Part shown: positions 18,514-29,390 of the stretch, piece after piece | Position numbering within the stretch: position 1 is the stretch's first letter | How the letters are laid out: every line of letters begins with the position of its first letter | IMG/VR virus record: IMGVR_UViG_3300012920_000162 | Span: 1 to 30,421 of that record | Reading direction: 5' to 3' (one strand) | Source of the DNA: a virus | DNA length: 30,421 bases | Position numbers and translations under genes: made by a program | Notes under the pieces: generated by a model | What the model saw: only the letters and a program-made list of their open reading frames with translations | Database searches by the model: none | Told to the model about the DNA's origin: nothing

Positions 18514-19893
18514 ATGGAGCAAGAAAAGAAAAGCTTCTCCAAGTTTGGAAAATCATTTCAAGAAGATTTGTGTCATCTTGTTCTGAACGATAGAACATTT
18601 GCAGATCAAATGTTTGAAGTGCTGGATCTAAACTTTTTGGAGTTAAAGCATTTACGAATCTTTATAAGAAAGATTAAGGAGTATAGAGAAAAATATGGAG
18701 TCCATCCCACATCTAACATTATGTTGTCCATCATACGAACGGGTTTGGAAGGAGAAGCCGAATCTGTCAAAACGAGAATCAGAGACTACTATGCTAGAGT
18801 GCTGGCCAACGGTGAACTTCCGGACGGCTCTGACTTCATTAAAGACACTGCTCTTGACTTCTGTAAAAAACAAAAACTCAAAGAAGCTCTGATTAAATCT
18901 GTTGAACTTATTAAATCATCTTCTTTTGATGAAGTATCAAAAGTAATAGATAACGCTCTTAAATTGGGCTCAGATAACACACTGGGATATGATTACCTTG
19001 CAGACTTTGAAGCACGCTTTATTAAAAAGGCTCGCGACCCCATTTCAACGGGCTGGCAGGACATTGATGACATTTCTAAGGGAGGTCTTGGGAAAGGGGA
19101 GCTTGGTGTTGTTGTTGCTCCTACTGGTGCTGGCAAATCAATGGTACTTGTACATCTCGGGGCAGCGGCACTCAAAGCCGGGAAAAATGTATTACACTAC
19201 ACATTGGAACTTGCTGATACTGTTGTTGGTGGCCGCTATGATGCTGCCATTACTGGTGTGGAACTTAAAAATCTAACTGTATTTAAAGAAAAAATTTATG
19301 ATGAGATAAGAGAAATTAATGGTAAGCTAATCATCAAAGAGTATCCCACAAGAAGCGCTAGTATCCAAACAATCAAAAATCACGTTGAGAAGCTAAAAAG
19401 GCGTAATTTCAACCCAGATATGATCATTGTTGACTACGGAGACTTAATTCGACCAGAAAATAGCAGAAAAGATGAGAAAAGGCACCAACTGGAAACTATT
19501 TACGAAGAGCTTAGAGGAATAGCTCAAATTTGCGAGTGTCCACTCTGGACAGCATCACAAACTAACAGATCTGGGTTGAACGCAGAAGTGATCACAATGG
19601 AGTCAATCTCCGAGGCGTTTAACAAATGTTTTGTAGCTGATTTTATCTTCACGGTGTCGAGAACCGTGGAGGACAAAAACACAAACCAAGGCCGAATCTT
19701 TGTTGCAAAAAACAGAAACGGCCCAGATGGATTAGTGTATCCAATTTTCATGGACACAAGCAATGTAAAAATAAAAGTTTTGCCTAAGACAGGCGAAACA
19801 GCAAACGATATAATCCAAAAATCTTCTGCTGAAAGGTTGGCTAACCTGAAAGAGAAGTACAAAGTTTTCAAGAAAGAAGGAGGAAAAAATTAA
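18514..19893 (+). CDS. 41: Replicative DNA helicase (DnaB/T4 gp41-like)
   Basis: The 459-residue protein is a ring-forming 5'-3' helicase. Residues 1-155 form a helical N-terminal domain; a linker leads to the RecA-like core. Walker A is 'APTGAGKS' (202-209), Walker B lies in 'MIIVDYGDLIRP', followed by 'WTASQTNRSG' and a late 'FVAKNRNGPDG' with the arginine-rich element typical of DnaB-type helicases. T4 gp41 is 475 residues. A 4-base-scale junction (stop at 19893 shares its last base with the ATG of nrdJ) shows coupling to the nucleotide-metabolism gene. No separate primase gene (gp61-like) is visible in this window. Confidence 0.93.
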   Translation: MEQEKKSFSKFGKSFQEDLCHLVLNDRTFADQMFEVLDLNFLELKHLRIFIRKIKEYREKYGVHPTSNIMLSIIRTGLEGEAESVKTRIRDYYARVLANGELPDGSDFIKDTALDFCKKQKLKEALIKSVELIKSSSFDEVSKVIDNALKLGSDNTLGYDYLADFEARFIKKARDPISTGWQDIDDISKGGLGKGELGVVVAPTGAGKSMVLVHLGAAALKAGKNVLHYTLELADTVVGGRYDAAITGVELKNLTVFKEKIYDEIREINGKLIIKEYPTRSASIQTIKNHVEKLKRRNFNPDMIIVDYGDLIRPENSRKDEKRHQLETIYEELRGIAQICECPLWTASQTNRSGLNAEVITMESISEAFNKCFVADFIFTVSRTVEDKNTNQGRIFVAKNRNGPDGLVYPIFMDTSNVKIKVLPKTGETANDIIQKSSAERLANLKEKYKVFKKEGGKN

Positions 19894-21755
19894 TGGAATT
19901 ATCAAATCAAATCTTATCAGAAATAACAGTACACATGAAGTACGCAAGATACTTAGAGCATGAAAAAAGAAGGGAAACTTGGGAAGAGCTTGTAACAAGA
20001 AATATGAATATGCATCTCAAAAAGTTTCCGGAACTAGAATTACAAATTCGAAAAGCGTATAAACAAGTTTTTGATAAGAAGGTGTTGCCATCAATGCGCT
20101 CAATGCAGTTTGGTGGCAAGCCAATTGAGGTAGCTCCAAATAGAATTTTTAACTGCGCTTTTATGCCGGCCGATGACTGGCGATGTTTTGGCGAGGCCAT
20201 GTTCCTTCTTCTTGGTGGAACTGGAGTAGGCTACTCAGTGCAAAAACATCACGTTGAGAAATTGCCAGAAGTCACACGACCTAATATGAATAGAACTAGG
20301 CGATTTCTTGTCAATGATTCTATTGAAGGTTGGGCCGACGCGATACAGGCTCTAGTAAAGTCTTATTTTTATGGAGGATCAAGACTCCGATTTGATTATT
20401 CAGATATTCGCCCGAAGGGTGCTGCTCTCATTACTTCTGGAGGCAAGGCCCCAGGTCCTCAACCCCTGCGTGAGTGCCTGGTGAAACTTGAAGGAATGCT
20501 CTCACAGAAGGAAAATGGAGATAAGCTAACGCCAATCGAAGTACACGATATGATTTGTCATATAGCAGACGCTGTGCTGGCAGGTGGTATTCGTCGGGCT
20601 GCTCTTATTTCTTTGTTCTCGGCTGATGACGAGGACATGATCGCTGCAAAGACAGGTAATTGGTGGGAAACCAATCCACAACGAGGACGCGCAAATAATT
20701 CTGTTGTTTTGCTTCGTCACAAGATTAATAAGGAGTATTTTATGAATCTTTGGGACAGAGTAAAAGCATCAGGAGCAGGTGAGCCCGGCTTCTACTTCTC
20801 AAACGATAAGGACTGGGGCACTAACCCTTGTTGTGAGATTGGTTTACGACCATATCAGTTTTGCAACCTAACAGAAGTAAATGTATCAAATGTTGAGAGC
20901 CAAGAAGATTTGAATGATCGTGTTAAGGCAGCAACGTTCATTGGAACATTACAGGCCAGTTATACAGACTTTCATTATCTTCGAGATATCTGGCGCAGAA
21001 CTACTGAAAAGGACGCTTTAATTGGAGTATCAATGACGGGCATTGCTTCCGGCGCGGTGTTGGATCTTAATATGAAAGAGGCAGCCGGCTGCGTCAAAGA
21101 AGAGAATGCTCGGGTAGCCGATCTGCTGGGTATCAAGCCCGCAGCGAGAACAACTTGTGTAAAACCAGCGGGCACTACATCTTTAACTCTTGGCACTTCT
21201 TCTGGTATTCACGCTTGGCACAATGATTATTATATCCGCCGCGTTAGGGTTGGTAAGAATGAGCCAATTTATGCATACTTGGTTCAAAACCATCCAGAAC
21301 TGATTGAGGATGAGTATTTCAGCCCGCATACAACTGCTGTTATTTCCATCCCGCAAAAAGCCCCAGAGGGTTCTATCTTGAGAACAGAATCAGCACTACA
21401 ACTTCTTAAGAGAGTTAAGCACGTAACAGATGAGTGGGTGAAGCCTGGTTTTCGCAAGGGCCAAAACACTCACAATATCTCTGCGACCATTTCAATAAAA
21501 GATGCAGAATGGGTTGACGTGGGTGAATGGATGTGGGATAATAGAAGTAGTTACAACGGCTTGTCAGTGCTTCCATTCTCAGATCACACTTATAAGCAGG
21601 CTCCCTTTGAGGACTGTTCGAAAGAGACATACGAAGCGCTCTTAGGCTCTTTGACATCCATAGACCTTACTAAGGTAACGGAAGAAGAGGACAACACAGA
21701 CCTTAAAGGCGAAGTTGCTTGCGCTGGAGGTGCATGCGAAGTGAAGTTTGTATGA
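19893..21755 (+). CDS. nrdJ: Adenosylcobalamin-dependent (class II) ribonucleotide reductase, monomeric type
   Basis: The 620-residue enzyme reduces ribonucleotides to deoxyribonucleotides with coenzyme B12, so it works with or without oxygen. Key residues can be placed: the 'FNCAFM' Cys (C88), then 'NPCCE' with C313 as the radical-bearing Cys and E315, and 'QFCNLTEVN' with C324. These correspond to the C119/C408/E410/C419 set of the Lactobacillus leichmannii RTPR. 'KAPGPQPLR' and 'VKPAGTTSLTLGTSSGIHA' are further class II signatures. The C-terminal Cys-x4-Cys ('CAGGAC') is the thioredoxin-type reduction tail. At 620 residues it is shorter than the 739 of L. leichmannii RTPR, as often in phage versions. 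It overlaps both neighbours. Confidence 0.94.
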   Translation: MELSNQILSEITVHMKYARYLEHEKRRETWEELVTRNMNMHLKKFPELELQIRKAYKQVFDKKVLPSMRSMQFGGKPIEVAPNRIFNCAFMPADDWRCFGEAMFLLLGGTGVGYSVQKHHVEKLPEVTRPNMNRTRRFLVNDSIEGWADAIQALVKSYFYGGSRLRFDYSDIRPKGAALITSGGKAPGPQPLRECLVKLEGMLSQKENGDKLTPIEVHDMICHIADAVLAGGIRRAALISLFSADDEDMIAAKTGNWWETNPQRGRANNSVVLLRHKINKEYFMNLWDRVKASGAGEPGFYFSNDKDWGTNPCCEIGLRPYQFCNLTEVNVSNVESQEDLNDRVKAATFIGTLQASYTDFHYLRDIWRRTTEKDALIGVSMTGIASGAVLDLNMKEAAGCVKEENARVADLLGIKPAARTTCVKPAGTTSLTLGTSSGIHAWHNDYYIRRVRVGKNEPIYAYLVQNHPELIEDEYFSPHTTAVISIPQKAPEGSILRTESALQLLKRVKHVTDEWVKPGFRKGQNTHNISATISIKDAEWVDVGEWMWDNRSSYNGLSVLPFSDHTYKQAPFEDCSKETYEALLGSLTSIDLTKVTEEEDNTDLKGEVACAGGACEVKFV

Positions 21756-22066
21756 TTACATTAACTGAATCTGCAGCCAACAAAATGAAAACGTTACTTT
21801 TAGAAAAAGAGGAAACAGGGGTACGCGCCGCCGTCCAAGGCGGCGGCTGTTCCGGCTTTACTTACAAGCTATTGTTCGATAATAAAAAAGATGGAGATAG
21901 AGTTATTGTTGATAGAGATGTAGAAATTTATCTTGATTCAAAAAGTTTTTTATATCTCATGGGAACAGAGATTGACTTTGTGGACGAACTAAACCAGTCG
22001 GGATTTAAATTCGTAAACCCCAACGCCAAAAGAACTTGTGGCTGCGGAGAAAGTTTTTCAATATAA
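21752..22066 (+). CDS. A-type Fe-S cluster carrier (IscA/HesB-like)
   Basis: The 104-residue protein has all three ligand cysteines of A-type carriers: C33 in 'GGGCSGF', and C96 and C98 in 'CGCGESF' at the C-terminus, with the family's usual length of about 105-110. It should carry or deliver an Fe-S cluster. I chose ATG 21752, which forms an ATGA overlap with the nrdJ stop and begins at the family's normal N-terminus ('ITLTESAANKMKTLL'); the in-frame ATG at 21719 only extends into nrdJ codons. HesB/IscA-like genes are known in cyanophages and other marine T4-like phages. The target here is unknown. Confidence 0.92.
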   Translation: MITLTESAANKMKTLLLEKEETGVRAAVQGGGCSGFTYKLLFDNKKDGDRVIVDRDVEIYLDSKSFLYLMGTEIDFVDELNQSGFKFVNPNAKRTCGCGESFSI

Positions 22067-22083
22067 ATTTTTCAAAAAAATAC

Positions 22084-22112
22084 TTTACAAATACAACAAT
22101 GTTTGATATATT
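22084..22112 (+). promoter_or_regulatory. Sigma70-type promoter with extended -10, before the 394-aa orphan
   Basis: TTTACA (22084-22089) and TATATT (22107-22112) are 17 bp apart, and a TG one base upstream of the -10 (22104-22105) makes it an extended -10 promoter. The start would be near 22119, giving a 20-base leader with AAAGGAAA before ATG 22140. Confidence 0.75.
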
Positions 22113-22139
22113 AAGATTAACTTAAAGAAAGGAAATAAA

Positions 22140-23324
22140 ATGTCAAAAACACAAACCAAAATTAACAACATAGAAAAACAAAGAATCATCAACTGCCTTA
22201 CAAATAAGAAATATAATAATCCATGGAAGGATGCTGATCCTCGTCAACAGACAATCTTTGATCACATTCTTGCCCTTTTACAAAAGGGATACACTTGGAG
22301 ATTTGATACATCGATGACTCTTGGCAATTTAGCTAAAAACACTGCAGTCACAGAGTATATTTTCTCAATTTTGCAACCTAGAAATGAAAAGGCTGGAGAT
22401 AGAGAAGGTATAAGCCAGTATGCTCACGAATTTTACGTGCTAGGCCATCGTTTAAAGCGCGTTATCGTGATGGCTGAAATTCAGTCACTGCTTTTTACTC
22501 TTGCAGGAGGAAAAAGAACTGCAGGACACTTGCTTGGCATCAAGAGCGGTCACACTTCATTATGTGATGCAATTGTTCTTATTCCTCCAAGTAACCTTGA
22601 AGAGTACGAAATTCTTGATGATCTTAAGTTCATTTCCGACGCTAGTAACGCAGAGAATACTGATGCTACACGAGACATGGACATGGCGAGTTACGCAAAC
22701 GCACTTCGGGCAAAGTGGGATTTACTTTGCCGAAACCCCAATCACTGGGCTTCTGCAAATATGGGAAACATTCAGGAGCTTAAAATCAGACAATGGGCAA
22801 AAAGCTTTCTGAAGAGCGTATACTCTTACGAGCCAGTAGAGAGTGTATTTGGAAATATTTTTAACCAGGTCTTTTCACAAGACCGAGGCCAGGTTTACGA
22901 AGAACTAAGCACTGATGATATCAAGAGGCTGTGGTCTAGCACGTTCCCTAATCAGGAATGGGTAGAAGAGCCAGTAAACGGTCAATGCTGTCAGGTAGTA
23001 GCTTACTCTCGCTTGGAGAGACAAGCCTTTATCCCTATTAATAAGGAATGGCTAAAGAGAGAATCATTCTCAACCCAGCGCGATGAAGTAGGAGTAGTCT
23101 TGAAATTGGACCCTCGCGCCGATTCGATCTCAACCGTTCTAGAGCACAAAGAGAAAGCCCGTCAGTTTTTAACCGAATATAACAATTGTTCAAATTATGA
23201 AGAAGCGGGTGCCGCATTAGTCACCCGGGTCTTATTTCCATCTCACATAAACCATGGTGACGATAAGTTGACCGCCTTCGAGTGGGTGAAGTCTAAGCAG
23301 GGCTTCTTTCCAGTAAAGGTATAG
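22140..23324 (+). CDS. Orphan 394-aa protein under its own promoter
   Basis: I do not recognise this protein. It is soluble with no signal peptide or membrane span, and is Trp- and Asn-rich. Landmarks are a basic N-terminus (residues 1-30), 'GYTWRFDTSMTLGNLAKNT' around 50-68, 'RLKRVIVMAEIQSLLFTLAG' around 103-122, 'DMDMASYANALRAKWDLL' around 180-197, and a C-terminal domain with 'VVLKLDPRADS' and 'EWVKSKQGFFPVKV'. The N-terminal 130 residues look helical, the C-terminal third mixed. It is transcribed from its own sigma70-type promoter, suggesting early or middle expression, and sits between nucleotide-metabolism genes and the tRNA-like gene. No function is proposed. Confidence 0.7.
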   Translation: MSKTQTKINNIEKQRIINCLTNKKYNNPWKDADPRQQTIFDHILALLQKGYTWRFDTSMTLGNLAKNTAVTEYIFSILQPRNEKAGDREGISQYAHEFYVLGHRLKRVIVMAEIQSLLFTLAGGKRTAGHLLGIKSGHTSLCDAIVLIPPSNLEEYEILDDLKFISDASNAENTDATRDMDMASYANALRAKWDLLCRNPNHWASANMGNIQELKIRQWAKSFLKSVYSYEPVESVFGNIFNQVFSQDRGQVYEELSTDDIKRLWSSTFPNQEWVEEPVNGQCCQVVAYSRLERQAFIPINKEWLKRESFSTQRDEVGVVLKLDPRADSISTVLEHKEKARQFLTEYNNCSNYEEAGAALVTRVLFPSHINHGDDKLTAFEWVKSKQGFFPVKV

Positions 23325-23330
23325 AATTGA

Positions 23331-23351
23331 GACCGCCTGTCCTGGGTGGTC
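23331..23351 (+). other. 7-bp hairpin between the orphan gene and the tRNA-like gene
   Basis: GACCGCC (23331-23337) pairs with GGTGGTC (23345-23351), one G-T pair, around a 7-base loop. It lies six bases after the stop codon and five before the tRNA-shaped element. There is no T-run, so it is not a normal intrinsic terminator. It may protect the mRNA 3' end or mark the site for tRNA 5' processing. Confidence 0.5.
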
Positions 23352-23355
23352 CTAA

Positions 23356-23429
23356 GCCCAAGTGACCCAAGGGTAAGGGTGCCTCACAATCCAGTGAGGA
23401 AATTGTAGGTTCGAATCCTGCCTTGGGCT
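23356..23429 (+). tRNA. tRNA-shaped gene with abnormal anticodon loop, isotype unassigned
   Basis: A cloverleaf can be drawn by eye. Acceptor GCCCAAG/CTTGGGC (23356-23362/23422-23428) has 7 perfect pairs. T8 and G9 follow, then D stem ACCC/GGGT with an 8-base loop containing GGG, a 5-bp anticodon stem CCTCA/TGAGG (23382-23386/23395-23399), a 5-base variable loop, and a T arm GTAGG/CCTGC with the canonical TTCGAAT loop. The discriminator is T; no CCA is encoded. The anticodon loop is 8 bases (CAATCCAG, 23387-23394) or 6 if C and G pair, and neither form places a U before a readable triplet. I therefore do not name an amino acid. It may be a diverged tRNA, a frameshift-type tRNA or a decoy. Confidence 0.7.
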
Positions 23430-23441
23430 TACCCTTTTCTC

Positions 23442-23470
23442 TTTACACTACTTTTAAAATATTGTATAAT
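23442..23470 (+). promoter_or_regulatory. Sigma70-type promoter before the Mom-like gene
   Basis: TTTACA (23442-23447), a 17-bp spacer, and a perfect TATAAT (23465-23470) lie directly after the tRNA-shaped gene. The start would be near 23477, giving a leader of about 20 bases that contains AAAGGAAG before the TTG at 23498. Confidence 0.8.
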
Positions 23471-23497
23471 ATACAAAGTAACAAGAAAGGAAGAAAC

Positions 23498-24400
23498 TTG
23501 TCCAAAAAATATGAAATCAAAAAAATAGATAGAAAAGAAGCAACAGAACTTGTCCAAGCAAACCATTACTCTCCAGTAATGCCAAAACTAACAAAACATT
23601 GGCTAGGTGTCTACAAGCAGGAGGATCTAGTTGGCGTAATTACCTTAGGTTGGGGTACAAGACCAGTGCACACAATACAAAAGATTCTAGGACCAGAGTT
23701 TGAGTCAAAGGATTACTATGAAATAGGCAAGATGTGTATGTTGGATTCCGAACCCAAAAACTCAGAAACTCAAATGATCTCCCAAGTTGTTCGTTGGATT
23801 AAAGATAATTGTCCTGACGTCAAATTTTTGTATACCTTAGCTGACGGTATTATGGGCAAGTGTGGGTATGTGTATCAAGCAGCTAACTTTTATTACGGTG
23901 GTGAATATTGGACAGATAGCTATATGTCTCGCGATGGGGAAAAGGTGCACCCTAGAACAACTAGAAAACTATGTAAGGACAATTGGCTTTGGCACTACGA
24001 CGAAAGATTGAGCGGCTTTGATCAAGAATTTAAAGATAAACACGATGAAAAAGTAAGACTAGCAAAAGAAAACAACACAAAGCCTCCAAAAGAGCAAGTG
24101 TTTTGGTTGACACCGGAATACATGAAATATATAGGAATGAGAAAGATTAAAGGAAAAATGTTCAGATATATTTATCCTCTAAATAAAAAAGCCAAGAAGC
24201 TGCTCAAAAACAGCACAAAAATTGACTGGAAAATAGGTTCGGGCGTATATCCGAAAGCAGATAACGGTGCTTTGCAATGGAAAGAGATGACAGCAAGAAA
24301 AAAGTATGAGTTCCTACCTAATATGCCCGAGTGGAATCTTCACTTTGTTCATCATAACGAAAAAAATGTAAATGCACATAAAAAACTACAAAACACTTGA
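23498..24400 (+). CDS. Mom-like DNA-modification protein (GNAT fold)
   Basis: The 300-residue protein matches the family of phage Mu Mom, a GNAT-fold enzyme that modifies adenines in phage DNA and blocks restriction. Landmarks from the TTG start: 'ANHYSPVMPK' near residue 22, 'WLGVYKQEDLVGVITLGWG' around 35-53, 'YYEIGKMCMLDSEPKNSET' around 73-91 followed by 'ISQVVRWI', then 'LYTLADGIMGKCGYVYQAANFYYGGEYW' region around 107-134. These are the substrate/cofactor core elements of the family. Residues 170-300 are Lys-rich and longer than in Mu Mom (241 residues). TTG 23498 is chosen because it follows AAAGGAAG and the promoter; the open frame upstream to 23423 runs into the tRNA-like gene. ATG 23511 is out of frame. 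Confidence 0.72.
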   Translation: MSKKYEIKKIDRKEATELVQANHYSPVMPKLTKHWLGVYKQEDLVGVITLGWGTRPVHTIQKILGPEFESKDYYEIGKMCMLDSEPKNSETQMISQVVRWIKDNCPDVKFLYTLADGIMGKCGYVYQAANFYYGGEYWTDSYMSRDGEKVHPRTTRKLCKDNWLWHYDERLSGFDQEFKDKHDEKVRLAKENNTKPPKEQVFWLTPEYMKYIGMRKIKGKMFRYIYPLNKKAKKLLKNSTKIDWKIGSGVYPKADNGALQWKEMTARKKYEFLPNMPEWNLHFVHHNEKNVNAHKKLQNT

Positions 24401-24425
24401 CTTTTACTAAAATATGTATTAAAAT
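24397..24425 (+). promoter_or_regulatory. Sigma70-type promoter before the 90-aa gene
   Basis: TTGACT (24397-24402), a 17-bp spacer and TAAAAT (24420-24425) overlap the stop of the Mom-like gene. The start would be near 24432, giving a leader with AAAGGAG before ATG 24455. The unit read from here could run through ThyX and the lipoprotein, since no terminator is seen. Confidence 0.7.
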
Positions 24426-24454
24426 AATTAAAGGAAACAATAAAGGAGTAAACA

Positions 24455-24727
24455 ATGAGTTCCAACAACGATAAACTACTAACCAAAGAAGAACATCTTG
24501 CAAATTACATTAAAACATTTGTCGCCATTGAGGATGCAATGGAACCATTCAAGGAACAGCGTAAAGATTTGCGTGAATCTTACAATGAAAATGGGTGGCT
24601 AACAAAAGAAGAAATGAGACTGGCCGTAAAAGCATATAGACTTTACAAGTCAGAAACTGACATGGAAATCTTAACTGATTATGTTAACAAGTGTCAAAGG
24701 TCTGTGGGGAGGATCAATGGCCTCTAA
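24455..24727 (+). CDS. Small helical protein, weakly GapR/DUF2312-like
   Basis: The 90-residue protein is almost all helical and charged: 'HLANYIKTFVAIEDAMEPFK', 'EQRKDLRESYNENGWLTKEE', then a Lys/Tyr-rich helix. The layout of a coiled N-terminal helix, a short 'NGW' turn and an 'RLAVKAYRL' helix recalls GapR/DUF2312 DNA-binding proteins, but the match is loose and the length similar only by coincidence of small size. It may equally be an unrelated small phage protein. It has its own promoter and AAAGGAG, and overlaps the next gene by 11 bases. Confidence 0.6.
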   Translation: MSSNNDKLLTKEEHLANYIKTFVAIEDAMEPFKEQRKDLRESYNENGWLTKEEMRLAVKAYRLYKSETDMEILTDYVNKCQRSVGRINGL

Positions 24728-25040
24728 TATAGAAATGCTAAAGCCTGTTAACAGGCACCTTTTAATTATTCCTCATGTTCAAAAAAACGAAACAAATGCA
24801 GGAGTATTGTTGCCCGAAGATTACCAGCCAGAAGAAAATCAATATGTAGAAGCAAGCGTTATTGATATTGCAGAGGATTGTGATAAACAATTTCGACATT
24901 TGAAATATGGTACTATTGATAACAATAGAATCGTTGTAGACCGATCAATGATTCAAGAAGTTACTCTTAAGGATAAAACTCACTTCATGATTTTAGAAAA
25001 TTATGTTGTAGGAGTTTATAGGAGGCCAAGTGAAAATTGA
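24717..25040 (+). CDS. 31: GroES-like co-chaperonin (T4 gp31-like)
   Basis: The 107-residue protein has the GroES outline: 'LKPVNRHLLIIP' at the N-terminus (first barrel strand), a mobile-loop-like 'KNETNAGVLLPEDY' (about 20-33), 'YVEASVIDIAEDC' and a final 'ENYVVGVYRRP' strand. T4 gp31 is 111 residues and replaces GroES so that GroEL can fold the major capsid protein. ATG 24717 follows GGGGAGG with good spacing; the in-frame ATG at 24681 lies inside the upstream gene and lacks that support. Similarity to gp31 is by fold pattern, so the exact partner is inference. Confidence 0.7.
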   Translation: MASNIEMLKPVNRHLLIIPHVQKNETNAGVLLPEDYQPEENQYVEASVIDIAEDCDKQFRHLKYGTIDNNRIVVDRSMIQEVTLKDKTHFMILENYVVGVYRRPSEN

Positions 25041-25734
25041 ACTGTTTGGAGATAAAATAGGTGCGGTTGAATACGTTTCACATATGGGTACAGATTTGTC
25101 GGTTGTTAATGCGGCCAGGGTTTCGTTCGGTGCGGAAAAGGAAGAAGTAGATGAAAAAGATATTAAACTTATCAACTATCTCATGGCTCATAACCATAGT
25201 TCTCCTTTTGAGCATTGTGCACTTACTTTTAAATTCACTGTGCCTTTATTTATACGTTCCCAGCATCATAGACATCGTACTTGGGCCTATAACGAAATTA
25301 GTAGACGTTATACCTCAGTAGATATTCAGTTTTACGAACCAAGTGAATTTAGGACTCAACACAAAAGCAATAGGCAGGCGAGTACAGACAGCTTGATTGA
25401 CCCATTTCTTGAATCAAACAGAGACGGCTCCCCTACCATGTCAAAGGCTTCTACTCAGGTTAGAAGCCATCACAGAGAATCTACAAGATTGTTTGAAGAA
25501 TTGTTAGAGTCAGGAGTATGTAGAGAACAGGCTAGGGGAGTTTTGCCCCAAAATCTTTATACACAATATTTTGGTACTGTTAATTTACATAACTTACTAA
25601 AATTCGTTTCTTTGCGAGTCCATGAGGGAGCCCAATGGGAAATACAGCAAGTTGCAAAGGCTTGCCTTGAAATCGCAAAGCAACACTTCCCTCACTCTGT
25701 AGAATCTTACATGAAACATAAAATGGAGCACTGA
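25030..25734 (+). CDS. thyX: FAD-dependent thymidylate synthase ThyX
   Basis: The 234-residue enzyme makes dTMP from dUMP with methylenetetrahydrofolate and FAD. The signature is RHRTWAYNEISRRY at residues 81-94, matching RHRxxSxNxxSxRY with the first Ser replaced by Ala (A86); S91 of the SxRY end, the important Ser, is kept. 'NHSSPFEHCALTFKFTVPLF' around residues 55-74 and 'GVCREQARGVLPQNLYTQYF' near 157-176 are further family landmarks. The GTG start follows GGAGG and overlaps the gp31-like gene by 11 bases. With NrdJ it supplies dNTP precursors. Confidence 0.95.
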   Translation: MKIELFGDKIGAVEYVSHMGTDLSVVNAARVSFGAEKEEVDEKDIKLINYLMAHNHSSPFEHCALTFKFTVPLFIRSQHHRHRTWAYNEISRRYTSVDIQFYEPSEFRTQHKSNRQASTDSLIDPFLESNRDGSPTMSKASTQVRSHHRESTRLFEELLESGVCREQARGVLPQNLYTQYFGTVNLHNLLKFVSLRVHEGAQWEIQQVAKACLEIAKQHFPHSVESYMKHKMEH

Positions 25735-27779
25735 TGAAAAAACTAGCACTTCTAATATTCTTAATTGCATGCTCAGACAGTAGTATCACCGGAAGCAACC
25801 TTGACGCCGAACGAACAAGAAGTCTCGTACCAGATGCGAGAGTAAATGATATTCAGGTGGTTCGCATCCCGGACATAACTGTTGATGCTTGGGTTGACCC
25901 CTGCGCCGACTTACCAAACACGCATCCTAGGTTTTGTGCCTGCAACCCAAATTGCTGCCAGGAACAAACTTGGTACTGCCCACCAAGAGGTGTAGAAATT
26001 CAAGCAAAATACGCTATTTTAGATATCTGCGATGAAAATTTAGAGCCTTGCGATAGAAATAGAGACCCTAATTGCCCACCTGCAGAGATCATCGAAGAAA
26101 CCGGATGTCAACATGCATTTGACTGCCCTCCTGGTATTAACGAGGACTTCACTCTTACATATGACTGTGAAATAAACGGAACAGCAGGAACACAACAGGT
26201 TCGATGTGATAAGGGTCGTTTGTATTATGGAGAGTGTGTAACTTGTTTTGAGGAAGAAGAAGTGTGTGATGGTAATGACAATGATTGTGATGGGAATATA
26301 GATGAGAATCAATTAAACGCCTGCGACGGTTGTGGCCAGGTGCCAGAAGATATCTGTGATGGCCTAGACAACGATTGTGACGGCACTATTGATGAAGATC
26401 TACTAAGAGAGTGTACAACTATATGCAACTCAGGTTTAGAGATTTGTGGCAACGGAGATTGGATTGGGTGCACAGCACAGCGCCCTGTAGGTGAAGAGTG
26501 CGACGGTGAAGATAACGATTGCGATGGCCTAGTTGACGAAGGCCTTAATTGTCAATGTCCACCTGAGCAAGTAGGGGCCCTGATACCATGCTCAGAACCA
26601 CCATTAAGCTGTGGCATGGGTTTCAAGACATGCGAGTGTGTGAACGACGATTGCCAAGTAACACAAATGACAGAGTGTTTCGCACTGTGCCATTGGGTAC
26701 CAGAATTAGAAGCACAAGGTGCACCATGCGACCAATTTGCCGGCATACCAACAAACCCTGAACTGTGTAATAACTTTGACGAAGACTGTGATTCTTTAAT
26801 TGATGAACAGTTAACCAGACAGTGTTATACAGGGCCAGAAGACACTTTAAACGTAGGTGTTTGCGCACCCGGACTCCAAGCATGTAACGCTGGCCAATGG
26901 TACGGACGTAGTTCTCAAGGTCGACAAGTCGTTGATCTATGCGGAGATGAAGTAGTACCCAGCCAGGAGATCTGCGATGGAGCCGACAACGACTGTGACG
27001 GTATAGTTGACTTCGGAGAAGAGATACCAGAAACGGATATCTTGTTCTTGGTAGACTGGTCAGGATCTATGGAAAACTACATTAACGCGGTTCGTATGGC
27101 GATGAATCGATTTGCTCAGGATTTCGAAGCAGAGGATAAGCTTAAGTGGAGCCTTATTGTTGGCCCAAAGGCAGCCCCCGGTCCTGGAGGTACACAGGAA
27201 ATGCTTATACTACAGTCTGATATCGCAGATTTTGAAGACTTCTTGACAGCCTTTGCAAATGTTGGTCAATTTGATAATCAAACAGGTAATGAGCAATTTA
27301 AAGATGCAATCATTCTGGCGCTGCAAAACATTTCAGGCAATGTGCAATACAACGTTGCCAATGCAACCTGGGCCAATAGGATGGGTTCGTTCCCCGAGTT
27401 AAAGTTTTTCAAGGTAAATTGGAGGCCAAATGCAGATAGAATTATCATATTGTTTAGTGATGAGTTTGCTCAGTCTTTTCTAGTACCCCGGGTCACCACT
27501 GATCAGGTCTGGGATGCTTTGGAAGCCACTCCAAACTTAAAGTTCTACGCATTCGCTGAGAGGAATTCAAGAGTCTGGGATAATTATGCCGACCATGGAA
27601 ACGGATCAGTATTTCAATTATCTAGAAACCAGCAACAGATGTATGACGATCTAATGTCTATCTTGGATGAAATATGTCTTTCATCTTCAGGGCAAGAAGC
27701 TAGAAGTACACTGCCTTCTGGATTCTTTCCGGCCTCACTAGGTGTTAGGTATGATCATAAGATAGGGATATGTTACTGA
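25734..27779 (+). CDS. Lipoprotein with MopE-type Cys/Asp repeats and a VWA domain
   Basis: The 681-residue protein begins MKKLALLIFLIAC, a short lipoprotein signal with lipobox L-I-A-C13, so it should be lipid-anchored outside the cytoplasm. Residues 50-150 are Cys-rich. Five copies of the CDGxDNDCDGxxDE-type motif follow, at about residues 176, 206, 254, 343 and 412; this is the putative metal-binding motif of MopE-like proteins, common in delta-proteobacteria and relatives. A von Willebrand factor A domain starts near residue 433 with a MIDAS 'DWSGS' (D441, S443, S445), a later Thr in 'NQTGNEQF' and Asp in 'LFSDEF'. About 36 other Cys suggest disulphides. Its ATG shares a base with the thyX stop and its stop overlaps the next ATG, so it is integral to the phage operon. 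The function is unknown. Confidence 0.88.
   Translation: MKKLALLIFLIACSDSSITGSNLDAERTRSLVPDARVNDIQVVRIPDITVDAWVDPCADLPNTHPRFCACNPNCCQEQTWYCPPRGVEIQAKYAILDICDENLEPCDRNRDPNCPPAEIIEETGCQHAFDCPPGINEDFTLTYDCEINGTAGTQQVRCDKGRLYYGECVTCFEEEEVCDGNDNDCDGNIDENQLNACDGCGQVPEDICDGLDNDCDGTIDEDLLRECTTICNSGLEICGNGDWIGCTAQRPVGEECDGEDNDCDGLVDEGLNCQCPPEQVGALIPCSEPPLSCGMGFKTCECVNDDCQVTQMTECFALCHWVPELEAQGAPCDQFAGIPTNPELCNNFDEDCDSLIDEQLTRQCYTGPEDTLNVGVCAPGLQACNAGQWYGRSSQGRQVVDLCGDEVVPSQEICDGADNDCDGIVDFGEEIPETDILFLVDWSGSMENYINAVRMAMNRFAQDFEAEDKLKWSLIVGPKAAPGPGGTQEMLILQSDIADFEDFLTAFANVGQFDNQTGNEQFKDAIILALQNISGNVQYNVANATWANRMGSFPELKFFKVNWRPNADRIIILFSDEFAQSFLVPRVTTDQVWDALEATPNLKFYAFAERNSRVWDNYADHGNGSVFQLSRNQQQMYDDLMSILDEICLSSSGQEARSTLPSGFFPASLGVRYDHKIGICY
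26262..27015 (+). repeat. Five dispersed MopE-type CDGxDNDCDG repeats
   Basis: Units lie at about 26262-26309, 26349-26397, 26494-26541, 26760-26810 and 26968-27015. Four keep CDGxDNDCDG; the fourth is degenerate (CNNFDEDCDS). The spacing is uneven (about 85-270 bases) and codon use differs between copies, so these are old protein repeats and not a DNA array. Confidence 0.85.
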
Positions 27780-28552
27780 ACGGTGTTGTACTGGGCTCTT
27801 GTGTAGAGTCCGCATATTTCGCCCTGGTCAATGAATTGCACTTCATCCCAACCAGGAAGACACCATACCTGTTTTATGAGTTATCGGATATTAAAATATT
27901 TGGATTATCCAAAAAATCAGAAATATGGGATAAACTAAATCTAATGATAGGGCTCCTTTCAAAGCGAATTGCCATTGAAGAGACTTCGAATATAAGAGTA
28001 TCAGAAGACATAATCAGAATAGCAACGGGCAACATTACTTTCAAATACCAATTCGATAATATTTATATTTTTGACCCAACTGGTATTGAACTAGAAAACG
28101 AGATTGAGTACGCAAGGCCAAAAACTTATCGAGTTCTCGATGATTTTGAATTATCAGTTTTAGGTCCTCGAAAGTATGAACTTACACCTTTAATTAACGA
28201 TGATAATTTTGCAAAGGAGTTGCACTTTTATTGCTCAGATAGGGTCGATGGAGCAGATTATATTACAGATTGTGTAGTAGAATCAGAACTAACTCAAGAA
28301 CAGTTAAATTCTTTTGATTACTCTGACTCTATGGTAAGATTTGTTGTAGAGAGACACTTGAGTTCTATAGGGGTTTATGGTAGACTAATGAAGTATTATG
28401 TAAGTGGCAAACCAAAGTATCGCAAGCCAAAAGTAATACATGTTAAAAGAATAGTGGAAGAAAAAGATAACAACTTATATAAGAAGACCAAAAATATAAA
28501 ATTTTTATCTTTATCATTGAGAGAAATAATTGAAAAAAGCACCAAAAGGTAG
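27770..28552 (+). CDS. Orphan 260-aa protein, possibly nucleotide-binding at N-terminus
   Basis: No family is recognised. The N-terminus 'MLLNGVVLGSCVESAYFALV' has a strand-Gly-x-x-helix feel similar to a Rossmann start, followed by 'LHFIPTRKTPYLFYE'. The middle is beta-rich ('IIRIATGNITFKYQFDNIYI', about residues 85-104), and the C-terminus is basic (Lys-rich, with an 'IVEEKDNNLYKKTKN' helix). No membrane span is clear. The ATG overlaps the lipoprotein stop by 10 bases and the gene overlaps the next by 23 bases, so it is translated with both neighbours. A shared pathway with the nucleotidyltransferase-like neighbour is possible but unproven. Confidence 0.6.
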   Translation: MLLNGVVLGSCVESAYFALVNELHFIPTRKTPYLFYELSDIKIFGLSKKSEIWDKLNLMIGLLSKRIAIEETSNIRVSEDIIRIATGNITFKYQFDNIYIFDPTGIELENEIEYARPKTYRVLDDFELSVLGPRKYELTPLINDDNFAKELHFYCSDRVDGADYITDCVVESELTQEQLNSFDYSDSMVRFVVERHLSSIGVYGRLMKYYVSGKPKYRKPKVIHVKRIVEEKDNNLYKKTKNIKFLSLSLREIIEKSTKR

Positions 28553-29390
28553 GAATGTAGCCGGCATAATACCATTAACAGGCTGGAAAGACTCTTTTGA
28601 TTTCCCGTGGCCAGATTATTTGCAGCCTTTGCGAGAGGGATTTTTGGCTGTGGAAAGATCGGTGTACGAATGTGCATATGCAGGTTGTGATAGTATATGG
28701 GTTGTTTGTGGAGATGACGTAGCACCTTTAGTAAAACAAAGAATAGGTGACTACGTAATGTCACCGTTGTATTTTGACCAAAAAGACTTTGTCAAGTCAA
28801 AACATTACCATGAAAAGTGGATTCCAATATTTTATACACCAATGACTCAGAAAGATATAGACAGGAGAGACAGCCTTGGGTGGTCAGCACTACACGGTGC
28901 CCTGATGGCCTTTCAGATATCTGACAAGATGAGTCAATGGGCTCGACCTACTAAATATTTTGTATCCTTTCCTTATGGCATATATCATCCGGGAGTAGTA
29001 AAGCAAAATAGAGATATCATTAGAGGTAAACAGTCTTTCTATCTATCGTATCAGGGAAAAACTGTTCGAGATGGAGCGTATCTTGGGTTTACTTTTTTCC
29101 CAGAAGACTGGCCTAAATTCAAGCACCATATTAAAAATCAATGTACTGGAGGATCTAGATCTATACCTGCGGCAGAAAGGTGGTCTAGTAGAAATTTTTC
29201 TCTTGACAAAATATTCAATTTAGATGTAATATCAGTAGATGAGAAATGCGAGGTATCAGAGTATTACAGCTTAGATAGTTGGAGTGAATTACAGCAATAT
29301 TACGCTTCTGACTTAAAGATACCTCGCCCGACGAGACAGTTCATGAAACCATATTACCATAGGAGAATGATAGAAGATGAAGAATCTTGA
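28530..29390 (+). CDS. Nucleotidyltransferase-like (GT-A fold) protein
   Basis: The 286-residue protein begins with a pattern like sugar-phosphate nucleotidyltransferases: 'GIIPLTG' (strand and loop), 'FPWPDYLQP', 'AVERSVYECAYAGCDSIWVV' (helix then strand) and 'VAPLVKQRIGD'. Those are the first alpha/beta units of a GT-A fold, which binds an NTP. Later landmarks are 'GWSALHGALMAFQISDKMSQ' and 'KYFVSFPYGIYHPG', but the canonical Lys/Asp catalytic set is not clear to me. The start is taken as TTG 28530, preceded by a GAGAG stretch; no ATG lies near. A role in surface-sugar or DNA-base modification would fit a phage, but is inference. Confidence 0.5.
   Translation: MKKAPKGRNVAGIIPLTGWKDSFDFPWPDYLQPLREGFLAVERSVYECAYAGCDSIWVVCGDDVAPLVKQRIGDYVMSPLYFDQKDFVKSKHYHEKWIPIFYTPMTQKDIDRRDSLGWSALHGALMAFQISDKMSQWARPTKYFVSFPYGIYHPGVVKQNRDIIRGKQSFYLSYQGKTVRDGAYLGFTFFPEDWPKFKHHIKNQCTGGSRSIPAAERWSSRNFSLDKIFNLDVISVDEKCEVSEYYSLDSWSELQQYYASDLKIPRPTRQFMKPYYHRRMIEDEES

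What the first reader, a model, noticed from the sequence alone, without database searches (positions are those of the whole stretch)
25734..27779. Phage-encoded lipoprotein joining MopE-type metal repeats to a VWA domain
Lipobox, five CDGxDNDCDG-type repeats and a VWA domain with an apparently complete MIDAS occur in one 681-aa protein, locked into the phage operon by base-sharing overlaps at both ends (ATG on the thyX stop; its own stop over the next ATG). MopE-like repeats are known from delta-proteobacteria and relatives, so this points to host range and to a surface-exposed protein made during infection. It could block superinfection, remodel the envelope or bind metal. I know of no described phage system built on this architecture.
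Basis: partly seen in the sequence, partly recalled or inferred. Interest (0 to 1): 0.8.

Follow-up and report, generated by a model that had tools for sequence, protein, structure and literature searches.

The report
Phage lipoprotein with an integrin-like head
Many uncultured phages, probably marine, share a large fat-anchored envelope protein that joins a disulphide-rich metal-repeat stalk to an integrin-like binding domain; no bacterium searched has it and its role is untested, but it often sits beside a gene for dissolving the cell wall.

Summary
In detail: ORF 25734-27779 (681 aa) has a lipobox (Cys13), five MopE-type repeats (the fourth degenerate) and a C-terminal VWA domain, and overlaps thyX and the next gene. 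It is neither chance nor a chimera. At least 104 relatives occur in viral contigs, none in 50,697 isolated-phage records; apart from one chimeric contig, the full architecture is in none of about 85,000 prokaryote genomes. All 48 cysteines and the MIDAS (D441/S443/S445, E520, D576) are conserved. Closest folds and weak profile matches are integrin-beta I-like domains. The cysteine-rich half resembles no solved structure. The gene lies in dnaB-nrdJ-cpn10-thyX-X-D1-D2-dnaE and has moved between phage backbones. In 18 of 67 unique loci an exported lytic transglycosylase lies just upstream, once with an Rz-like spanin between. LIPO-less sister phages use the same slot for an amidase endolysin or a putative transglycosylase. 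Best reading: a phage-specific, probably outer-membrane lipoprotein acting in the envelope, most likely with lysis (about 0.4); superinfection exclusion is the main rival (0.25). It is not a canonical spanin, Llp or MopE. Host and timing are unknown; a candidate late-promoter motif is absent upstream, which weakens the lysis reading.

The parts
25734..27779 (+). LIPO: 681-aa phage lipoprotein, MopE-type repeats plus VWA
   Evidence: full-length relatives in viral contigs
25734..25772 (+). signal peptide and lipobox LIAC, lipidated Cys13
   Evidence: Cys invariant 40/40; Asp at +2 in only 1/40
25773..25898 (+). variable, unstructured D/P-rich tether (residues 14-55)
   Evidence: pLDDT below 50 at 9-51; mean entropy 2.53 bits
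25899..26249 (+). N-terminal cysteine-rich beta domain (56-172)
   Evidence: no solved-structure relative
26265..26306 (+). MopE-type repeat 1 (178-191) CDGNDNDCDGNIDE
26355..26396 (+). MopE-type repeat 2 (208-221) CDGLDNDCDGTIDE
26499..26540 (+). MopE-type repeat 3 (256-269) CDGEDNDCDGLVDE
26547..26768 (+). family-specific cysteine domain (272-345) with PPLxCGxGFKxCxC
   Evidence: at least 104 viral loci; 0 in genome contigs
26766..26807 (+). degenerate repeat 4 (345-358) CNNFDEDCDSLIDE
   Evidence: invariant CN.FDEDCD
26973..27014 (+). repeat 5 (414-427) CDGADNDCDGIVDF
27021..27683 (+). VWA / integrin-beta I-like domain (430-650)
   Evidence: pLDDT about 90; Foldseek integrin beta-3 E 1e-6; PF00092 in 10/10 members
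27054..27068 (+). MIDAS loop 1 D441-W-S443-G-S445
   Evidence: D, S, G, S invariant
27291..27293 (+). E520, probable MIDAS loop 2
   Evidence: invariant; 4 residues before DA, as in integrin beta (alignment inferred)
27459..27461 (+). D576, MIDAS loop 3 (FSDE)
   Evidence: invariant; aligned with integrin beta-8 MTD
27771..27773 (+). C-terminal Cys680
   Evidence: at least 90% conserved, kept also where D1 does not overlap
25030..25734 (+). thyX, upstream operon neighbour
27770..28552 (+). D1, unknown gene overlapping the LIPO stop
   Evidence: also in LIPO-less phages
28530..29390 (+). D2, unknown gene conserved with D1

Best explanation
LIPO is a phage-specific lipoprotein made during infection. 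The host Sec and lipoprotein pathways export it and, by the +2 rule, place it in the outer membrane (inferred). From the lipid anchor a flexible tether leads to a disulphide-braced stalk of cysteine domains and five Ca/metal-type loops, which carries an integrin-beta-like VWA head; the head would grip a conserved acidic ligand through a MIDAS metal. The most likely job is to help breach the envelope at lysis, working beside the phage's cell-wall-degrading enzyme: it would tie or pull on an outer-membrane, peptidoglycan or phage partner once the wall is cut, taking an o-spanin-like role. Shown: family, architecture, conservation, lipobox, phage restriction, gene linkage. Inferred: outer-membrane location, metal loading, ligand binding. 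The lysis role is a hypothesis from gene context. The stated confidence is for the lysis role; that it is a phage-specific exported lipoprotein I hold at about 0.95.
For: Lipobox Cys invariant and +2 Asp in 1/40. All 48 Cys at least 90% conserved; mature Cys count odd (47 or 53 in most) in 38/40, leaving one unpaired, as expected for an intermolecular disulphide; such bonds are proposed as general for two-component spanins (PMC6139136). MIDAS residues invariant across backbones, suggesting a conserved ligand. PF01464 transglycosylase directly upstream, often overlapping the LIPO start by 46-55 nt, in 18/67 unique loci; LIPO lies next to it in two different backbones. L007/L008: transglycosylase - TM/coiled-coil protein matching two Rz-like spanin PHROGs (E 2e-4 to 6e-3) - LIPO. 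In LIPO-less sister phages the slot holds an Amidase_2 + PG_binding endolysin (L313) or an exported transglycosylase-like ORF (11 loci, motif only).
Against: Most loci, including the window, have no lysis gene next to LIPO; in lineage-B genomes the transglycosylase is about 11-55 kb away. LIPO lies among replication genes and a candidate late-promoter motif is absent from the 150 nt upstream in all 75 loci, which suggests early or middle expression. It is far larger than known spanins (both genes together average not above 250 residues, PMC6139136), with no coiled coil and no C-terminal TM. The transglycosylase-like ORF of the LIPO-less clade was not confirmed by profile comparison. Enrichment of small membrane proteins next to LIPO is weak (9/79 against 17/449, p 0.009, loci not independent). 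The slot may simply tolerate insertions.
Confidence: 0.4

Rival explanations
1. Superinfection exclusion: LIPO is an early outer-membrane lipoprotein that occupies or closes the phage receptor, protecting the infected cell and keeping progeny off debris, as T5 Llp does on FhuA.
For: Lipoprotein in a replication operon with no late-promoter motif; ligand-binding VWA domain; LIPO is exchanged between phage backbones, as expected of a shared exclusion factor; Llp precedent (PMC9586334).
Against: The MIDAS residues and surrounding motifs are near-invariant across phage backbones, whereas receptors differ between hosts; it is not next to a receptor-binding gene; known exclusion lipoproteins are small; it is linked to cell-wall enzymes instead.
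Confidence: 0.25
2. Surface adhesin or matrix protein of the infected cell: the integrin-like head is displayed outward and binds other cells, surfaces or virions, changing aggregation or sinking of infected cells.
For: VWA/MIDAS domains are typical adhesion modules and the closest folds are integrins; MopE itself is surface-associated (PMC4257694).
Against: No evidence of surface display; neighbours are cell-wall and nucleotide genes; lipoproteins face the periplasm by default.
Confidence: 0.15
3. Trans-envelope scaffold or maturation factor unrelated to lysis, for instance anchoring a periplasmic phage complex, in the way the VWA lipoprotein TssR does in the Bacteroidota type VI membrane complex.
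For: 2 of 10 VWA segments match TssR_VWA at up to E 1e-3; TssR is a VWA lipoprotein of a membrane complex (PMC10781749).
Against: No conserved multi-protein membrane partner set was found next to LIPO.
Confidence: 0.1
4. Virion protein, such as a tail adhesin.
For: Phages carry VWA proteins, and a tail module lies in the same window.
Against: Lipobox in all aligned relatives, no tail gene adjacent, no late-promoter motif, no PHROG match.
Confidence: 0.05
5. Chimeric assembly or a recently captured host gene.
For: MopE repeats are common in Myxococcota.
Against: More than 100 viral contigs with conserved synteny; no full-length cellular relative. The only genome hit, L157, is itself a likely chimera (GC 0.69 to 0.43).
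Confidence: 0.02

Closest known systems
Phage o-spanins and u-spanins (Rz1, T4 spanin, T1 gp11)
   Same: phage-encoded lipoprotein, cysteines, sometimes beside an endolysin and an Rz-like protein
   Different: LIPO is several times larger, with MopE repeats and a VWA domain; no coiled coil, Pro-rich region or C-terminal TM
T5 Llp superinfection-exclusion lipoprotein
   Same: phage lipoprotein predicted for the outer membrane
   Different: Llp is small, without VWA or MopE repeats, and acts on one receptor
MopE / PF11617 repeat proteins (Methylococcus MopE, Myxococcota surface proteins)
   Same: C-D-G-x-D-N-D-C-D-G repeats, exported
   Different: no homology found outside the repeats; LIPO is lipidated, carries a VWA, and is found only in phages
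Integrin beta I-like domain / bacterial VWA adhesins
   Same: VWA fold, DxSxS + E + D metal site, W-R...(V/F)xxD motif
   Different: sequence similarity only marginal (E 0.017); no hybrid, PSI or EGF domains found
TssR of Bacteroidota type VI secretion
   Same: VWA-bearing envelope lipoprotein
   Different: TssR is not described with a cysteine/MopE stalk; only weak VWA profile matches

Membership tests
Phage o-spanin | N-terminal lipobox lipoprotein encoded by a phage | tested here: met
   Cys13 invariant
Phage o-spanin | short protein (spanin pair averages not above 250 aa) | tested here: not met
   681-782 aa in most relatives; PMC6139136
Phage o-spanin | adjacent or embedded i-spanin (type II membrane protein) | tested here: inconclusive
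   Rz-like protein adjacent in L007/L008 only; weak enrichment elsewhere
Phage o-spanin | disrupts the outer membrane at lysis | not testable with these tools
   needs complementation of lambda Rz/Rz1
T5 Llp-type exclusion lipoprotein | blocks a receptor; early expression | not testable with these tools
   only indirect: no late-promoter motif upstream
MopE (Methylococcus copper protein) | PF11617 repeats | tested here: met
   42.5 bits against cut-off 27
MopE (Methylococcus copper protein) | homology outside the repeats and copper binding | tested here: inconclusive
   cellular matches to repeats only; not compared with MopE itself; copper binding not testable
VWA domain superfamily | VWA fold with DxSxS MIDAS | tested here: met
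Integrin beta I-like domain | significant sequence homology to integrin beta | tested here: inconclusive
   best PDB sequence hits, but E 0.017
Bacterial MopE-VWA protein captured by phage | full-length cellular homologue | tested here: not met
   0 with the family-specific region; VWA and middle profiles hit strongly only the likely chimera L157

The most novel reading that the evidence does not exclude
A new outer-membrane-breaching system used by large uncultured phages in place of ordinary spanins: an integrin-like lipoprotein that grips a conserved envelope or phage partner through a MIDAS metal once the transglycosylase has cut the wall.
Probability: 0.22. Interest if true: 0.85.

Novelty: new variant of a known kind. 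Interest (0 to 1): 0.62.

Why it matters
A core gene of a widespread uncultured phage lineage encodes an envelope protein of a kind not described in phages, with an integrin-beta-like metal site. About 13% of phage genomes surveyed had no recognisable spanin, many of them marine, and whether another route through the outer membrane exists is an open question (PMC6139136). If LIPO acts there, the question becomes directly testable. If it acts in superinfection exclusion instead, it would be a very large exclusion lipoprotein with a metal-dependent binding head.

Tried and rejected
Chimeric assembly: rejected by synteny in independent contigs. Host gene captured from a bacterium: rejected, no full-length cellular relative; the one apparent genome hit (L157, Halieaceae MAG) shows a GC break into the LIPO fragment. 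Host from repeat similarity: rejected, repeats only. Host from the nearest isolated phage (Microcystis phage Mel-JY01 by NrdJ and sheath): not used, too distant and it lacks LIPO. T4-type late promoter TATAAATA: only 6 matches in the window on both strands (2.1 expected), and none upstream of genes in two related genomes. The LIPO-less clade's 192-aa ORF as a confirmed transglycosylase: not confirmed, kept as motif-only. Small-membrane-protein neighbour enrichment: weak. Literature searches for a described phage system: none found (two queries were malformed). PDB and BFVD fold searches: VWA only; the cysteine half matched nothing.

Full report
The observation. The ORF at 25734-27779 encodes 681 aa. 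It starts on the last base of the thyX stop and overlaps the next ORF, D1, by 10 nt; 37 of 46 measured relatives keep the same overlap. The N-terminus is a lipoprotein signal ending LIAC. Five C-x-x-x-D-x-D-C repeats start at residues 178, 208, 256, 345 and 414. PF11617 is above its curated cut-off; VWA is below cut-off for the single protein but matched by all 10 family segments tested. The window is a 30,421-bp IMG/VR record.

The family. A viral-contig scan with the protein gave 76 distinct loci at 41-92% identity. A scan with a family-specific 74-residue segment found at least 104 viral relatives, none in 85,000 prokaryote genomes. No isolated phage has it. In an alignment of 40 diverse members the lipobox Cys, DxSxS, E520 and D576 are invariant; all 48 cysteines of the window protein are at least 90% conserved, and the mature cysteine count is odd in 38 of 40, usually 47 or 53. 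Only 1 of 40 has Asp at +2, which by the enterobacterial rule favours the outer membrane (inference). Each of 16 related records searched carries one LIPO (one record carries a tandem pair) and no other MopE-repeat protein.

Structure. The AlphaFold2 model has mean pLDDT 79; the VWA domain (430-650) is mostly near 90; residues 9-51 are unstructured. Top Foldseek matches are integrin beta subunits and VWA domains, and the VWA profile's best PDB sequence matches are integrin beta-8, though only at E 0.017. The alignment shares D-x-S-x-S, the W-R...T/S-D motif, and, by spacing to the following DA, the loop-2 glutamate; this last point is inference. The cysteine-rich part (54-432) was modelled on its own (pLDDT 82, pTM 0.45) and resembles no solved structure. 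In the viral library only one match is clearly stronger than generic VWA hits (A0A516KYY5, 25% identity, E 2e-18).

Genome setting. Most loci show dnaB-nrdJ-(erpA/mom)-cpn10-thyX-LIPO-D1-D2-dnaE. D1 and D2 also occur in a sister clade (35-40% identity in D2) that keeps the block but lacks LIPO. LIPO also occurs in other phage backbones; the tree needs at least 6 changes of context on well-supported branches, so the gene has been exchanged. It diverges faster than the replication genes (median 49% against 75-90%) and about as fast as cpn10 and D2.

Link to cell-wall genes. In 18 of 67 unique loci with enough upstream sequence, an exported SLT transglycosylase (PF01464; closest solved relatives MltC and MltE) lies within 1.5 kb upstream of LIPO, often overlapping its start by 46-55 nt. 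Among them, L021 and L030 share a different backbone and a distinct SLT subtype, while their LIPOs group with different lineage-A members; so LIPO sits beside an SLT in two backbones. In L007/L008 a 102-aa TM/coiled-coil protein with weak Rz-like spanin matches lies between SLT and LIPO. In the LIPO-less sister clade the slot holds an amidase/PG-binding endolysin in L313 and, in 11 loci, an exported ORF with a transglycosylase-like motif that profile comparison did not confirm. Against this, in lineage-B genomes the SLT is about 11-55 kb from LIPO, and several genomes show no SLT.

Timing. In one 190-kb relative the motif ACTATTTA occurs 25 times on the coding strand and 3 times on the other, often 12-64 nt before structural genes including the tail sheath; it is a candidate late promoter. 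It is absent from the 150 nt upstream of LIPO in 75 unique loci (one locus has only the 7-mer CTATTTA), and nearly absent before the replication genes. LIPO is therefore probably expressed with early or middle genes in lineage A, which is a point for exclusion and against a purely late lysis protein; the SLT in the same operon would be in the same position.

Mechanism. Shown: export signal, lipobox, domain order, conservation, phage restriction, gene linkage. Inferred: outer-membrane anchoring, metal-loaded loops, MIDAS-dependent binding of a conserved acidic ligand, one intermolecular disulphide. Hypothesis: action at envelope breaching beside the cell-wall enzyme (0.4), with superinfection exclusion next (0.25).

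Comparison. LIPO fails the size criterion for spanins (PMC6139136), shares only a lipid anchor with T5 Llp (PMC9586334), shares only repeats with MopE, and reaches integrin beta only by fold and marginal sequence score. No paper describing it was found, within an open-licence library that misses subscription journals and preprints. The host is unknown, and 'marine' rests on my reading of contig origins and phage kinship, not on a test.

Noticed in passing
G007 (190,698-bp record of L073), read as L237-L246: ACTATTTA occurs 25 times on the coding strand against 3 on the other, often 12-64 nt before structural genes; candidate late promoter of this lineage.
   Followed up: partly
window 23423-24400: Mom-like DNA modification protein (PF25680, E 3e-56).
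   Followed up: no
window 19893-25040: B12-type ribonucleotide reductase, Fe-S assembly protein (PF01521) and a Cpn10-like protein (PF00166, E 3e-5) beside thyX.
   Followed up: no
window 23355-23430: ARAGORN reports a tRNA of unassigned type with a four-base anticodon.
   Followed up: no
L039:8282-10585: Tandem paralogue of LIPO, about 26% identical, also with lipobox, repeats and VWA.
   Followed up: partly
L020:5601-5894, L071:5701-5985, L111:4873-5181, G007:21301-21603: A second small cysteine-rich lipoprotein of 95-103 aa, directly upstream of LIPO in three loci.
   Followed up: no
L123:7434-7967, L156:7407-8009, L039:10547-11143: Exported or lipoprotein HExxH proteins near LIPO; the L039 one is a weak SprT-like match.
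   Followed up: partly
L131, L133, L135, L146, L150, downstream of LIPO: Adenylosuccinate-synthetase-like gene of about 331 aa (PF00709 in L131 and L135); the PurZ model is below its cut-off in L135.
   Followed up: partly
window 28530-29390: D2 reads like a nucleotidyltransferase-type fold by eye; no Pfam, PHROG or NCBIfam match.
   Followed up: no
L157: Halieaceae MAG contig with a LIPO fragment at its end and a GC break from 0.69 to 0.43; likely chimeric.
   Followed up: yes
records G002-G005 (L018, L019, L039, L047): Two tail-sheath-like genes per genome in lineage-B phages.
   Followed up: no
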